A stretch of DNA of 56,811 nucleotides from positions 1 to 56,811 of the forward strand of contig JAFUVV010000018.1 of the NCBI GenBank assembly GCA_017477435.1, written 5' to 3'. Positions 49,209 through 56,740 of the stretch are shown one piece after another. The stretch's first letter is position 1. The number at the start of each line of letters is the position of its first letter. A program made the position numbers and the translations under genes. The DNA is from Prevotella sp. Lineage in GTDB: Bacteria > Bacteroidota > Bacteroidia > Bacteroidales > Bacteroidaceae. Below the pieces are notes generated by a model, which worked only from the letters and a program-made list of their open reading frames with translations, had not been told where the DNA came from and made no database searches.

Positions 49209-49331
49209 GTTTTGCAGTCTCAGTTTTATGATTATCTTATGGTTAGGCTACATTTTGCCTTACACTCATATAGATACCATAAGAGAAACAAAGACTGCAT
49301 CGTTGCGTATAAAAATTGGGCAGTAATGGTA

Positions 49332-51044
49332 TTACCAGGTAATTCTTATTCCTAACGGACATGTAAACATAAACGGATGTTTCGTGCGGTAGGTCTCAAT
49401 GCTGCTTCCCGTCGGGATATAGTATTGCATGCTTGGCTCAGTAAAGAGACCGATGGCAGGTGTGAGGTTAAACTGCAAGCCAAGGCCCGCACCTGTCGAC
49501 CACTGCAGCGGAGCGTGGAGCGCAGACTTCTCTTCCAGTTCTTTCATTCCGTTCACGAAATAGCTTGTGCTGAGCGGAGCATAGACAGGTATCTCCAGCT
49601 TCACGCCAAGACTTCCGTAGAGGTTCCATCTTCTAAAATTATATATATTATAGGATCCCTTCAGCGGTATGCCGAGGTAATGGATGGTCTGCTGCTCGCA
49701 GATAGCGTTTCCTCCTGTGCCTATCTCCGACTCCGATTTCAAGCGGCTGTAGCTCAAGCCTGTCTCCAAGCCAAAGCGGTTATTCAGTTTGTACTTCATG
49801 GCCAAGGAGAATCCCGTGGGCATGTGATGATGAGTCTTACGTTCAATCTTGTCCGCGCCAGGCAGGGCAGCGTTGTTTTGGGCTATCTTCAACAAGACTT
49901 GATATGTCTTGTAATCTACATCAAGTGTTCCACTCTGTAAGGCTTCGGCATAGTCGCTCCATTTGTCGAAAGAGCGGATAGGCAATACGATTGTGGCATC
50001 TGTCATCTCCTTCTCGGTGAATACAAACGGGCTATTAGCATTCATTTCTCCCATGCCACCTGTGTATGCCATATCTACCGACCACTTTTGCCCCTCGTTC
50101 CTTCCCTCTGTTGGTTTTTCCGGGAACAGGTTGGCAACATGGGTGTCTTTGTCCGAACGCAAGTCGGGCAGTGGCTTGTCGTCGTGTGAAATGAGCAGCG
50201 TGTCGGTGCGCTCTGTTTCTCCGACAGCATGATGGACTGTGTCAGCAGAAGCAAGACTTTCTTCTGGAACAACTTTGGCAGGAGCAATGGCTACCTGCTG
50301 CGGAGTAACTATGGGAATGGTTGGAGTTCCTTGTTCTATCGCAGGAGCTCCTTCGTCATCATGCTTTGTTGGGGGTGTAGTTTGTTCTTGTTTTGTCAAT
50401 ACCGTCCCTGGTGTCTCAATAGTCCTTCCCGTCTTATGAAGATAGATGGCCAAAGGCAACAGAAGCGGCAAAAGCCATAGCAGCCAATAGTGGGCAAGCG
50501 ACTTCTGCAACATTTTCTTTGCCCTTGACAGCTGTGACGATGAAGAGTGGGCTGCAATTCCAAGGATGTAGGCTATTTCCTTGTGCGACATTTCTTGGAT
50601 GACTGCCAACTTGAACACTTGCCCGTAACCATTGGGCAACGCATCTACAGCCGCCATCAGTTCTGCCATTGTAGGCAAGGGCTTATCGTCCGACTGAACA
50701 GGTTGTGACTGTTCTTCGACAAGCGATGCGGCAGAACTGACTGCTTCCTCAGAGAGGGTAGAAAGAGATAGCGTCACAGAATCATGATGCCGTTGTTTGT
50801 AACGTCGGGCAACATTGGTAGTTATGCTTGTCAGCCATGCCTCGAAGCGTTGTGGATTGCGCAACTGTTCCATCTTGGCAAAAGCCAGAAGGAATGCATC
50901 ATGTGCCAATTCTTCTGCCACTTGCCGATTGCCTACAATGCGTTGGCATATCCCCGTCATTTGCCGGTGATATGCCATATATAGGCTGCCAAGTGCCGTC
51001 TCGTCGCCTTGCCGCCCTCGCTCTATGAGTTCTTCTATGTCCAT
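49332..51044 (-). CDS. ECF sigma factor fused to a transmembrane segment and an outer-membrane beta-barrel (trans-envelope sigma factor)
   Basis: 570 aa, one frame. Sigma region 2 at about 1-86 (IEELIERGRQGDETALGSL, AEELAHDAFLLAFAKMEQL, RFEAWLTSITTNVARRYK). Sigma region 4 at about 126-183 (LPNGYGQVFKLAVIQEMSHK, IAYILGIAAHSSSSQLSRA). One TM helix at 187-203 (YWLLWLLPLLLPLAIYLHK region). A Pro/Thr-rich linker at about 204-318. Then an eight-stranded barrel with strands near 319-330, 409-420, 423-436, 452-466, 473-486, 512-526, 531-543 and 556-570, ending in Trp. N-in topology and an even strand number are consistent. In Bacteroides, ECF sigmas pair with separate Dma anti-sigma proteins (one TM plus a C-terminal barrel); here both are one polypeptide. 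ATG 51044 is chosen over an upstream frame to 51104. Confidence 0.85.
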   Translation of the reverse strand: MDIEELIERGRQGDETALGSLYMAYHRQMTGICQRIVGNRQVAEELAHDAFLLAFAKMEQLRNPQRFEAWLTSITTNVARRYKQRHHDSVTLSLSTLSEEAVSSAASLVEEQSQPVQSDDKPLPTMAELMAAVDALPNGYGQVFKLAVIQEMSHKEIAYILGIAAHSSSSQLSRAKKMLQKSLAHYWLLWLLPLLLPLAIYLHKTGRTIETPGTVLTKQEQTTPPTKHDDEGAPAIEQGTPTIPIVTPQQVAIAPAKVVPEESLASADTVHHAVGETERTDTLLISHDDKPLPDLRSDKDTHVANLFPEKPTEGRNEGQKWSVDMAYTGGMGEMNANSPFVFTEKEMTDATIVLPIRSFDKWSDYAEALQSGTLDVDYKTYQVLLKIAQNNAALPGADKIERKTHHHMPTGFSLAMKYKLNNRFGLETGLSYSRLKSESEIGTGGNAICEQQTIHYLGIPLKGSYNIYNFRRWNLYGSLGVKLEIPVYAPLSTSYFVNGMKELEEKSALHAPLQWSTGAGLGLQFNLTPAIGLFTEPSMQYYIPTGSSIETYRTKHPFMFTCPLGIRITW

Positions 51045-51210
51045 CAACGTACTGTTGAGTCTTCGGCGAAAAAAACATACTGCCTCTATTGACATAGATA
51101 CCACTTACCCCAAAAGACTGCACGAGAAGAACAACTTTTTTCCGAATACGAATAACTACGACAATCTATATAGGTGGAATGGTGGACTCCTATTGATGAT
51201 GGCGAGGAGG

Positions 51211-55492: not shown

Positions 55493-56740
55493 ATGGCAAA
55501 GATTGAGTTGCGGCTTTCATCGAAAGTCCAAAAGGAAACCTGTAGGCAGGAGGTGCTTATTCGTTTCCATGAAGGCAAGAAGTTTTGCCTTTATGCAAAG
55601 AGTGGTGTCTATGTTTCACCAGAGTTTTTTGAGTATTACATTGATCGTGCTGCAACAGAAGCGAACGATGTAATTGTTCCGTCCAAGTTAGTAACAGCCA
55701 CACAGAAGAAAGCGGAGAGCAAAGGTTACGTCTTATACAAGCGTGGCATTATCTGTGTCAGCAACCACCGATTAGAGACTCCAGAAGTCAGATGGCACAA
55801 ACAGCAGGCAGAACGTATCGAGCAACTTTCAAAGCAAATCATCAAGTGCTATGAAGACGCTCCCAAGACTGAGATTGCTGGCAACTGGCTAACAGACATC
55901 GTGGATAAGTTCAACCATCCCGAAGTTTACAACAAGGCTCCCAAGACGTTCTATGAGTTGGCAGAGGAATACATCGAGAAGAAAGAGCTGGCAGAATCCC
56001 ATGCCAGAGTGTTTCGTGTATTGTTACGCGCTGTTTCCCGCTATGAGGGATTTGTCAGGGCTACCGATGATAGCCGGAAGTATTTTTCATTCGACATCAA
56101 TCATGTTACCCGTGAAGACATTGAGGACTTTTCCGATTATCTGCGTAACGAAAGCACCTTGGCCGAGGAAAGACCCAAACTGTTTGCGCGGTTGCTGAAA
56201 GACTACCCAAACAACGTTAAGCCAGGACACACAAAAATTGAGGTAAGGGGAGATAATACCATTATCAAAATGCGCGGACGCTTGAAGTCTCTGTTTCTCT
56301 GGTTCTTGGAAATGGGCTATACCATGAACAGACCTTTTGACGGACTGAAGATAGGTGTCGAAAGGGTTGGCACTCCTTATTATATATCTATAGACGAGCG
56401 AAATGCTATTGCCGAAACCGACCTTTCTGCAAGATGGGCTACCATGACGAAAGAAGAACGTAAACCTGCGAGAATGCCATTGAAGACATTGATTGAACAG
56501 CGTGACATATTCGTATTTCAATGTCTGATTGGCTGTCGTGTCGGTGACTTGCTCAAGCTAACCAATGACAACATACATGACGGTTTCCTTACATACACCC
56601 CACATAAGACCAAAGATGAGGGAAAGACTCCTTTCCAAGCCAGAGTACCACTACACCCAAAGGCACTTAAACTGATTGAGAAGTATCAAGGTAAAGACAG
56701 GAAAGGGCGGCTTTTTCCGTGTCTGAGCGGTCAACTGTAG
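55493..56740 (+). pseudogene. Tyrosine recombinase (Bacteroidales integrase), C-terminally truncated
   Basis: 415 residues remain. The N-terminal Arm-DNA-bind-type start (MAKIELRLSSKVQKETCRQE), the SAM-like core-binding domain (about 150-270, FYELAEEYIEKKELAESH) and the start of the catalytic domain (IGCRVGDLLKLT, the first catalytic Arg, about 345; YTPHKTKDEGK) are present. The HxxR, His/Trp and nucleophile Tyr of the last about 100 residues are missing. The frame ends in CTG TAG, where the TG and the stop are supplied by the incoming IS-like sequence starting at 56736. Recombination activity should be lost. GC and codon use differ from the flanking genes. Confidence 0.88.

What the first reader, a model, noticed from the sequence alone, without database searches (positions are those of the whole stretch)
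49332..51044. A sigma factor covalently fused to an outer-membrane barrel, spanning the whole envelope
The gene encodes in one open frame an ECF sigma (regions 2 and 4), one inner-membrane helix (about residues 187-203), a long Pro/Thr-rich linker and an eight-strand C-terminal barrel ending in Trp. Dual membrane-spanning anti-sigma factors (Dma) are known in Bacteroides as separate proteins paired with ECF sigmas; here no anti-sigma gene lies beside it, and the sigma is itself the tethered cargo. A barrel in the outer membrane would hold the sigma at the inner membrane, and release would need proteolysis, so a surface signal could act directly on transcription without a second protein. Topology is consistent (N-in, even strand count).
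Basis: partly seen in the sequence, partly recalled or inferred. Interest (0 to 1): 0.92.

Follow-up and report, generated by a model that had tools for sequence, protein, structure and literature searches.

The report
Outer-membrane-tethered sigma factor without anti-sigma
This Prevotella-type gene joins a transcription sigma factor, one inner-membrane helix and an outer-membrane barrel in one protein; the layout was already reported as Dma3 in Bacteroides, but the sequence evidence adds that the usual anti-sigma domain is gone and that the protein seems wired to its own gene and the gene next door.

Summary
Observation confirmed. One intact 570-codon frame on the minus strand (window 49332-51044) encodes ECF sigma regions 2 and 4, one TM helix, a linker of about 117 aa and a C-terminal OMP barrel domain. 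It is no artefact: by hand count at least 65 of 301 family genomes carry it, and it is under purifying selection.

The architecture is not new: a 2026 paper says Bacteroides Dma3 carries its sigma domain at the N-terminus (PMC13088901). This is a Prevotella-type member.

Added here: (1) fused proteins lack the anti-sigma domain (0 of 59; 36 of 36 split relatives have it), and sigma region 4 runs into the helix. (2) Fused proteins form one clade among split sigma/Dma pairs; a transitional split locus exists. (3) A promoter-like element, RTGCAGTCTTT plus a -10 that varies by clade, lies before the gene (80 of 87 fused loci) and again just after its stop codon (60 of 87). In this 78%-complete genome the full element was found only there.

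Best reading: an OM-anchored sigma, freed by proteolysis, that switches on itself and its neighbour. Location, cleavage and promoter recognition are inferred.

The parts
49332..51044 (-). Fused sigma-TM-linker-barrel gene, 570 aa plus stop (P0001)
   Evidence: Open frame; conserved in relatives. The GTG start at 51104 listed lies inside the promoter-like element, upstream of its -10, so ATG 51044 is preferred
50787..50984 (-). Sigma region 2 (residues 21-86)
   Evidence: Pfam PF04542, 44.8 bits; same place
50508..50663 (-). Sigma region 4 (residues 128-179)
   Evidence: Pfam PF08281, 40.5 bits
50445..50501 (-). Inner-membrane helix (residues 182-200), two prolines inside; follows sigma region 4 with no anti-sigma domain between
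   Evidence: Kyte-Doolittle best 19-mer; gap sigma match to TM -3 to 8 aa in 57 fused loci; anti-sigma profile absent
50094..50444 (-). Thr/Pro-rich periplasmic linker (residues 201-317)
   Evidence: Length and composition; highest dN/dS of the regions, 0.34
49335..50093 (-). C-terminal barrel domain (residues 318-570)
   Evidence: OMP_b-brl_2 above cut-off; amphipathic pattern; homologous to barrels of split Dma-like proteins
49821..50060 (-). Long loop between strands 1 and 2 (residues 329-408, WSDYAEAL...IAQNN), on the surface side if the barrel's N-terminus is periplasmic; candidate sensing loop
   Evidence: Stretch between amphipathic segments, one weak segment inside; motif shared with split relative L098. 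Sensing role is inference
51091..51123 (-). Promoter-like element of the fused gene: GTGCAGTCTTTT-N6-AGTGGTATCTATGTC
   Evidence: Conserved in orthologues; only match in the genome with up to 3 mismatches
49271..49300 (-). Second promoter-like element, just after the fused gene's stop codon, before the next gene: ATGCAGTCTTTG...GGTATCTA
   Evidence: one of two matches to TGCAGTCTTTN{8,14}GTATCTA in the genome
48177..49208 (-). Predicted target gene, 343 aa, no Pfam or NCBIfam family; only sub-threshold PDB matches to alpha-1,6-fucosyltransferases
   Evidence: homologues downstream of the fused gene in L002 and L028

Best explanation
The gene encodes an outer-membrane-anchored ECF sigma factor of the Dma3 type. 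The sigma domain sits in the cytoplasm on a single inner-membrane helix, and a long linker joins it to a small barrel in the outer membrane. It descends from a two-gene sigma/Dma pair by loss of the ~50-residue anti-sigma domain and direct joining of sigma region 4 to the helix, so silencing must come from membrane tethering (or the fold of the joined chain), not from an anti-sigma domain. A disturbance felt by the barrel or its long first loop exposes the linker; regulated proteolysis (a site-1-type cut, then a site-2 M50 protease in the proline-containing helix) frees the sigma. The freed sigma recognises RTGCAGTCTTT plus a clade-specific -10 in front of its own gene and in front of the adjacent target gene (here a protein of unknown family, perhaps glycosyltransferase-like; elsewhere a methyltransferase, a radical SAM/Gfo-Idh pair or a lipoprotein), giving autoamplification and a small envelope- or small-molecule-modifying response. 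Shown by sequence: domain order, missing anti-sigma domain, one fused clade, the two promoter-like elements. Inferred: OM location, tether silencing, proteolysis, that this very sigma reads these elements, and the nature of the signal.
For: Domains; sigma half matches SigW and sigma-E chains in the PDB over its full length. Anti-sigma profile from split relatives: found in 36 of 36 split proteins in leave-one-out, in 0 of 59 fused at E 1e-3 (best 2.6). Gap sigma match to TM -3 to 8 aa in 57 of 57 fused. Pro in the TM 19-mer: 46 of 59 fused, 2 of 36 split. One fused clade in sigma (SH-aLRT 99, then 100) and barrel trees (97, 98). Promoter element: [AG]TGCAGT within 140 nt upstream in 52 of 57 fused loci, shuffled mean 1.2, maximum 3; 80 of 87 after adding loci; second copy within 60 nt of the stop in 60 of 87 (chance about 0.0066 per locus). 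Own and downstream -10 regions match better within a locus (13.84 of 24) than permuted (11.84, maximum 12.82; 50 loci); -10 classes agree in 46 of 57 (permuted mean 22.7, maximum 35). Whole genome: TGCAGTCTTTN{8,14}GTATCTA twice, both at this locus, reversed control 0. Own genome has one M50 and three S41 proteins. Precedents: IutY processed by Prc and RseP; a split barrel-bearing anti-sigma of P. vulgatus whose sigma gene rises 33-fold after toxin treatment, with longer O-antigen.
Against: No structure model, so barrel closure and strand count rest on Pfam, homology and an amphipathicity pattern whose segment number is hardly above shuffles. No localisation, cleavage or transcription data. 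Loci are related, so counts are not independent; -10 classes were defined after seeing the data, the regex put L042 and L043 (GGAC by eye) under TATCT, and agreement is weak in the CTCC class (2 of 6). 7 of 87 fused loci lack the upstream element and 27 of 87 the downstream one within 60 nt. The short pattern RTGCAGTMTTTT alone is hardly enriched in some genomes: G005 6 against 4 reversed, G056 3 against 2, G010 3 against 2, G168 8 against 3. In genomes with two usable paralogues the within-locus match was better in G060 and G181, worse in G052, tied in RUG12198. By eye the clade of L062, L063 and L065-L067 lacks the TM proline. M50 proteins ring in all 14 control genomes and S41 in 10, so their presence says little. 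The genome is 78% complete, so further sites may be missing. The window's target has no recognised family.
Confidence: 0.6

Rival explanations
1. Membrane-bound sigma that works in place. The uncleaved protein recruits RNA polymerase at the inner membrane and the barrel only modulates its activity, as in one-component membrane transcription factors (ToxR/CadC type, recalled).
For: Nothing in sequence shows a cleavage site; sigma regions are intact and under strong constraint.
Against: Sigma region 4 abuts the helix (gap -3 to 8 aa), which would crowd promoter DNA and polymerase against the bilayer (inference); IutY, called the only experimentally characterised case of its kind in the review read, needs cleavage.
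Confidence: 0.15
2. The conserved promoter elements are read by another sigma (for instance the separate Das-type sigma in the same genome), and the fused gene is a target rather than the reader.
For: Split pairs carry a sister element RTGCAGTATTT (16 of 36); this genome also holds a split sigma/barrel pair (L103); the dma3 locus is reported up in dma1 and dma2 mutants.
Against: The -10 tends to change with the fused sigma's clade, and the copy before the neighbour follows it (46 of 57); L103 itself has no RTGCAGT within 140 nt upstream. Cross-talk and self-reading are not exclusive.
Confidence: 0.15
3. The chain is routinely split into two products (constitutive processing or internal start), so sigma and barrel act apart and the fusion is only a shared transcript.
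For: Linker is the least constrained part (dN/dS 0.34).
Against: The fusion is kept as one frame in at least 65 of 301 family genomes (hand count), the TM stays under constraint (0.11), and the anti-sigma domain is absent from the fused chain, which makes most sense if tethering is used.
Confidence: 0.08
4. Sequencing or assembly artefact, or a decaying gene.
For: Two relatives (L087, L088) look frameshifted and this genome has a broken second copy.
Against: In one frame in many independent assemblies, two single-contig genomes included; purifying selection.
Confidence: 0.02

Closest known systems
Dma3 of Bacteroides thetaiotaomicron (locus BT_2778-2779; Pardue et al. 2024, as described in PMC13088901)
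   Same: Sigma domain at the N-terminus of a Dma-family protein; no adjacent separate sigma. Its locus is given as two genes, up in dma1 and dma2 mutants, as would be expected for fused gene plus neighbour.
   Different: Only a description is in the text I could read; the 2024 PNAS paper is not held and the Dma3 sequence could not be fetched by name, so orthology is not shown. Loss of the anti-sigma domain and the two promoter elements are not mentioned in the sections and passages read.
Dma1/Das1, Dma2/Das2, EcfO/Reo (split dual-membrane anti-sigma systems)
   Same: Split sigma/barrel pairs found here are homologous in both halves, with TM and tether and a related -35-like element. Dma layout in PMC13088901; Reo described as spanning the whole envelope in PMC13114119 (passages), its gene in PMC9308784. 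That the unnamed split pairs are Dma1, Dma2 or Reo is inferred from layout.
   Different: Two genes, with an N-terminal anti-sigma domain of about 50 aa that the fused clade lacks; promoter element within 100 nt after the barrel gene in only 1 of 36, L098.
IutY of Pseudomonas putida and actinobacterial ECF48/52/53 (PMC8999054, section 3.5.3 read)
   Same: ECF sigma fused to a membrane segment, thought or shown to be freed by proteolysis.
   Different: Those keep an anti-sigma portion in the fusion; no outer-membrane barrel is described in the section read.

Membership tests
ECF sigma factor | Regions 2 and 4 present | tested here: met
   PF04542 and PF08281 above cut-off; full-length match to SigW/sigma-E chains
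ECF sigma factor | Directs RNA polymerase to a specific promoter | tested here: inconclusive
   Conserved two-part element before own and next gene, -10 class tending to follow sigma clade; no transcription data
[quoted passage not shown]
   0 of 59 fused, 36 of 36 split in leave-one-out; the window's protein is one of the 59 (L020)
[quoted passage not shown]
   KD 1.68 at 182-200; charge bias N-in. Six of 59 fused relatives have another 19-mer at KD 1.6 or more
[quoted passage not shown]
   Length 97-209 aa in 57 fused loci, Thr/Pro-rich in the window; disorder itself not computed
[quoted passage not shown]
   OMP_b-brl_2 above cut-off, amphipathic pattern, homology to split barrels; no model, no fractionation
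[quoted passage not shown]
   Sigma is in the same chain; neighbours show no sigma family
Dma3 type | Sigma domain at the N-terminus of a TM-tether-barrel protein | tested here: met
   definition from PMC13088901 discussion
Dma3 type | Orthology with the B. thetaiotaomicron Dma3 sequence | not testable with these tools
IutY-type sigma/anti-sigma fusion | Anti-sigma domain between sigma and TM | tested here: not met
   No room: gap -3 to 8 aa. Only the split-Dma anti-sigma profile was tested, not that of IutY
IutY-type sigma/anti-sigma fusion | Release by Prc and RseP | not testable with these tools
   Candidate M50 (one) and S41 (three) proteins are in the genome

The most novel reading that the evidence does not exclude
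A self-contained one-protein, surface-to-promoter switch: evolution removed the anti-sigma factor from a sigma/Dma pair and left the sigma silenced by its outer-membrane anchor alone. Each copy drives a private two-promoter unit (itself and a swappable neighbour cassette) with a promoter specificity that changes with the sigma clade, so paralogues in one cell can run in parallel without cross-talk.
Probability: 0.45. Interest if true: 0.8.

Novelty: new member of a known kind. Interest (0 to 1): 0.6.

Why it matters
If right, it is a very short route from the bacterial surface to transcription: one chain that senses at the outer membrane and becomes the transcription factor. It would let one ask whether tethering alone can silence a sigma factor, since the anti-sigma domain is gone. 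The promoter element gives an immediate reporter and a predicted regulon for a protein type (Dma3) of which very little is said to be known, and may explain why the dma3 locus rises in dma1 and dma2 mutants (shared -35-like element). Several genomes carry two copies, and the neighbour cassettes look like surface or small-molecule modification genes.

Tried and rejected
Considered and rejected: misassembly or frameshift. A hidden anti-sigma domain in the linker: the split-family profile found none. Plain novelty of the architecture: rejected. Open-frame lengths alone as proof of fusion: several frames of 590-610 aa in the search tables (G205, G404, G556, G589, G408) proved to be two genes when fetched, so I counted only matches spanning sigma region 4 and barrel without a stop, or fetched loci.

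Led nowhere: structure prediction (never available), hence no fold search; identification of the window's target gene (no Pfam, no NCBIfam, PDB best E 0.89); a wide regulon: of the five RTGCAGTMTTTT hits of this genome one is the gene's own, one is a broken paralogue's promoter (L142) and three lie inside or across long stop-to-stop frames. Paralogue test of promoter pairing was mixed.

Rows dropped: A1 leaves out L007, L009 (like L006) and L017 (cut by contig end); its row L006 begins at a non-start codon. Trees used 3 of the 19 genome-contig loci (L001, L012, L015) and left out L024, L025 (near-copies), L086 (contig end), L087, L088 (broken) and a weak second sigma of L084; the trees used 26 chosen fused rows plus the two of G519. 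Searches used 16 of the 19 genome-contig loci. One search covered 72 of 73 loci (L008 has only 24 nt downstream), many with under 3.2 kb held. One search dropped pairs with saturated dS (86 to 117 of 120 pairs left, 120 for the barrel). In one search the N-terminal segment and TM picked for L103 were wrong (its full frame was still detected), so the 36 of the proline count include one bad row. In the larger barrel tree the outgroup was not one side of a branch.

Full report
WHAT IS THERE. The stretch 49332-51044 read on the minus strand is one open frame of 570 codons. Pfam finds sigma-70 region 2 (21-86), region 4 (128-179) and an outer-membrane barrel domain (413-530), all above cut-off. The sigma half aligns over its whole length with SigW and sigma-E chains in the PDB. 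A hydrophobic stretch at 182-200 with two prolines follows region 4 directly, then a Thr/Pro-rich linker of about 117 residues and the barrel. The barrel alignment shows strongly alternating segments (summed strength 51.9, shuffled mean 32.1, maximum 43.2), which I group by eye into eight strands; the number of segments (14) is hardly higher than in shuffles (12.3). No structure model could be made. The loop between strands 1 and 2 is about 80 residues; with a periplasmic linker it would face the outside (inference).

IS IT REAL. Nineteen loci in 18 Prevotella-type or related assemblies carry the same frame at 66-81% identity in the best segment. Eighteen run to the end, 15 of them from the same ATG; L006, L007 and L009 match from residue 5 on; L017 is cut by a contig end. 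In 301 genomes of the family I counted by hand, from the listing, 51 genomes with a match spanning sigma region 4 and barrel without a stop, and 14 more two-piece matches confirmed as one frame after fetching: at least 65 of 301, in 16 genus codes. Four more are unverified (G171, G199) or have a stop in the match (G152, G156). The listing is cut off and about four candidates per genome were scored, so this is a lower bound. dN/dS among 16 close orthologues is low throughout and highest in the linker.

HOW IT RELATES TO SPLIT SYSTEMS. Of the 60 loci fetched (analysed), 37 were one-frame fusions, 20 were a sigma gene followed at once by a separate TM-barrel gene, one ended at a contig edge and two looked broken; fused and split ones were picked for fetching, so these are not frequencies. 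Adding L020-L039 gives 57 fused; other families (15 split, two fused in G519) and this genome's own split pair L103 bring the sets to 59 fused and 36 split. A profile of the ~50-residue N-terminal anti-sigma domain of the split proteins found each of the 36 when it was left out of the profile, and none of 59 fused proteins (best E 2.6). In 57 fused loci the distance from the end of the sigma match to the helix is -3 to 8 residues. So the anti-sigma domain is absent. Trees of sigma and of barrel domains each show the fused proteins as one clade. In the sigma tree rooted on other ECF sigmas they lie among split ones, with support of 82-88 for the nesting; the larger barrel tree could not be rooted cleanly. 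In 295 genomes of the order, among the listed matches that I fetched, the only fused genes outside the family were two in G519; they fall inside a fused clade of the family, suggesting transfer. In 247 genomes across the phylum no fused match outside the family appeared at E 1e-48.

A TRANSITIONAL FORM. L098 (G293, single contig) is a split pair with an anti-sigma domain (leave-one-out E 3.1e-7), yet it has the fused-type promoter element before its sigma gene and again after its barrel gene, followed by a methyltransferase 50% identical to the one downstream of many fused genes. Its barrel shares the loop motif of the window's barrel. In the barrel tree it groups with the fused clade and one other split protein (support 91); in the sigma tree its place near the fused clade is unresolved. 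It occurs in 2 of 61 genomes of its genus code; the second copy (89% identical) has the same two elements and methyltransferase. The wiring thus seems older than the fusion (inference).

PROMOTER-LIKE ELEMENTS. Upstream sequences of close orthologues share one block, GTGCAGTCTTTT...GTATCTATGTCA. [AG]TGCAGT occurs within 140 nt upstream in 52 of 57 fused loci (shuffled mean 1.2) and 19 of 36 split loci (shuffled mean 0.8), where it reads RTGCAGTATTT in 16. A second copy lies within 60 nt after the fused stop codon in 53 of 73 loci, or 60 of 87 with later loci (upstream 80 of 87), but within 100 nt after the barrel gene in only 1 of 36 split loci. The -10 part varies (TATCT, GGAC, CTCC, TATCAT); the two copies of a locus fall in the same class in 46 of 57 (permuted mean 22.7, maximum 35), most of it from TATCT (27) and GGAC (15), while the CTCC class agrees in 2 of 6; two GGAC loci were misfiled by the pattern. 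By eye, and with exceptions, the region 2 loop of the sigma differs in step. Classes were set after looking and loci are related, so this is support, not proof. In this 78%-complete genome TGCAGTCTTTN{8,14}GTATCTA occurs twice, at 51095-51122 and 49271-49299 (minus strand), with none for the reversed pattern; four relatives (G063, G197, G194, G060) have 2, 1, 2 and 3 (reversed 0, 0, 1, 0). The short pattern RTGCAGTMTTTT alone is hardly above its reversed control in some genomes.

TARGETS. In 72 of 73 fused loci, tblastn in up to 3.2 kb downstream (often less was held) found a class I methyltransferase in 31, a radical SAM protein in 24, a Gfo/Idh oxidoreductase in 16, lipoprotein A in 16, lipoprotein B in 7 and the window's gene family in 3. 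Family names rest on Pfam except the lipoproteins (signal read by eye) and the window's target, which matches nothing above threshold; weak PDB hits are fucosyltransferases (E 0.89-0.97).

MECHANISM. With no anti-sigma domain, silencing most simply comes from holding the sigma at the inner membrane. Release by a site-1-type cut and an M50 protease is inferred from IutY (section read), from prolines in the helix of 46 of 59 fused but 2 of 36 split proteins, and from one M50 and three S41 proteins in the genome, which most control genomes have too. For the signal, the nearest experiment is the split pair of P. vulgatus: treatment with a toxin thought to perturb the outer membrane raised the sigma gene 33-fold and O-antigen grew longer (PMC9308784, passages and one section read). 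An outer-membrane disturbance as signal and autoinduction are therefore likely but unproven here.

PRIOR WORK. PMC13088901 (abstract, introduction, one results section, discussion and passages read) says Dma3 carries its sigma domain at the N-terminus, gives the locus as BT_2778-2779, reports it induced in dma1 and dma2 mutants, and says very little is known about it. The 2024 PNAS paper is not held. PMC8999054 (passages and one section), PMC9308784 (passages and one section), PMC8103513, PMC12596196 and PMC13114119 (passages) were also opened. Searches for related reports showed nothing, in listed titles, starts of abstracts or the passages I opened, on loss of the anti-sigma domain or on the promoter pair; this covers only the held open-access library.

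VERDICT. Real, conserved, of a kind already named. The missing anti-sigma domain, the single fused clade with a transitional form, and the self-plus-neighbour promoter pair are the new points, all from sequence and all testable.

Noticed in passing
L142:759-887 (own genome contig C41): A GGAC-class promoter element followed by the first 25 residues of a second fused gene (76% identical to L036 over them), then broken: this genome seems to have lost a second copy.
   Followed up: partly
L103:2447-4245 (own genome contig C55): The same genome also holds a split sigma/barrel pair of the related kind, without RTGCAGT within 140 nt upstream of its sigma gene.
   Followed up: partly
L087:2959-4514 and L088:2998-4709: Two fused genes in genus code g3 look frameshifted; the type may be decaying there.
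   Followed up: no
L002, about 4.9 kb after the first fused gene's stop: The start of a second sigma-TM frame of another clade lies downstream of the first fused gene on the same contig; its end was beyond the part I looked at.
   Followed up: no
L111, L112 (G519, another family): Two fused genes outside the family nest inside a fused clade of the family in both trees, suggesting horizontal transfer.
   Followed up: partly
L089, L093, L095, L119, L124 (upstream of split sigma genes): By eye, several split sigma genes have an inverted ACTGCA copy some tens of nt before the RTGCAGTATTT element, often with GTTAA nearby; possibly a second regulator site.
   Followed up: no
window 55493-56740 (+): A 415-aa frame at the window's end that by eye resembles a tyrosine recombinase; no tRNA found in the window; family not searched.
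   Followed up: no
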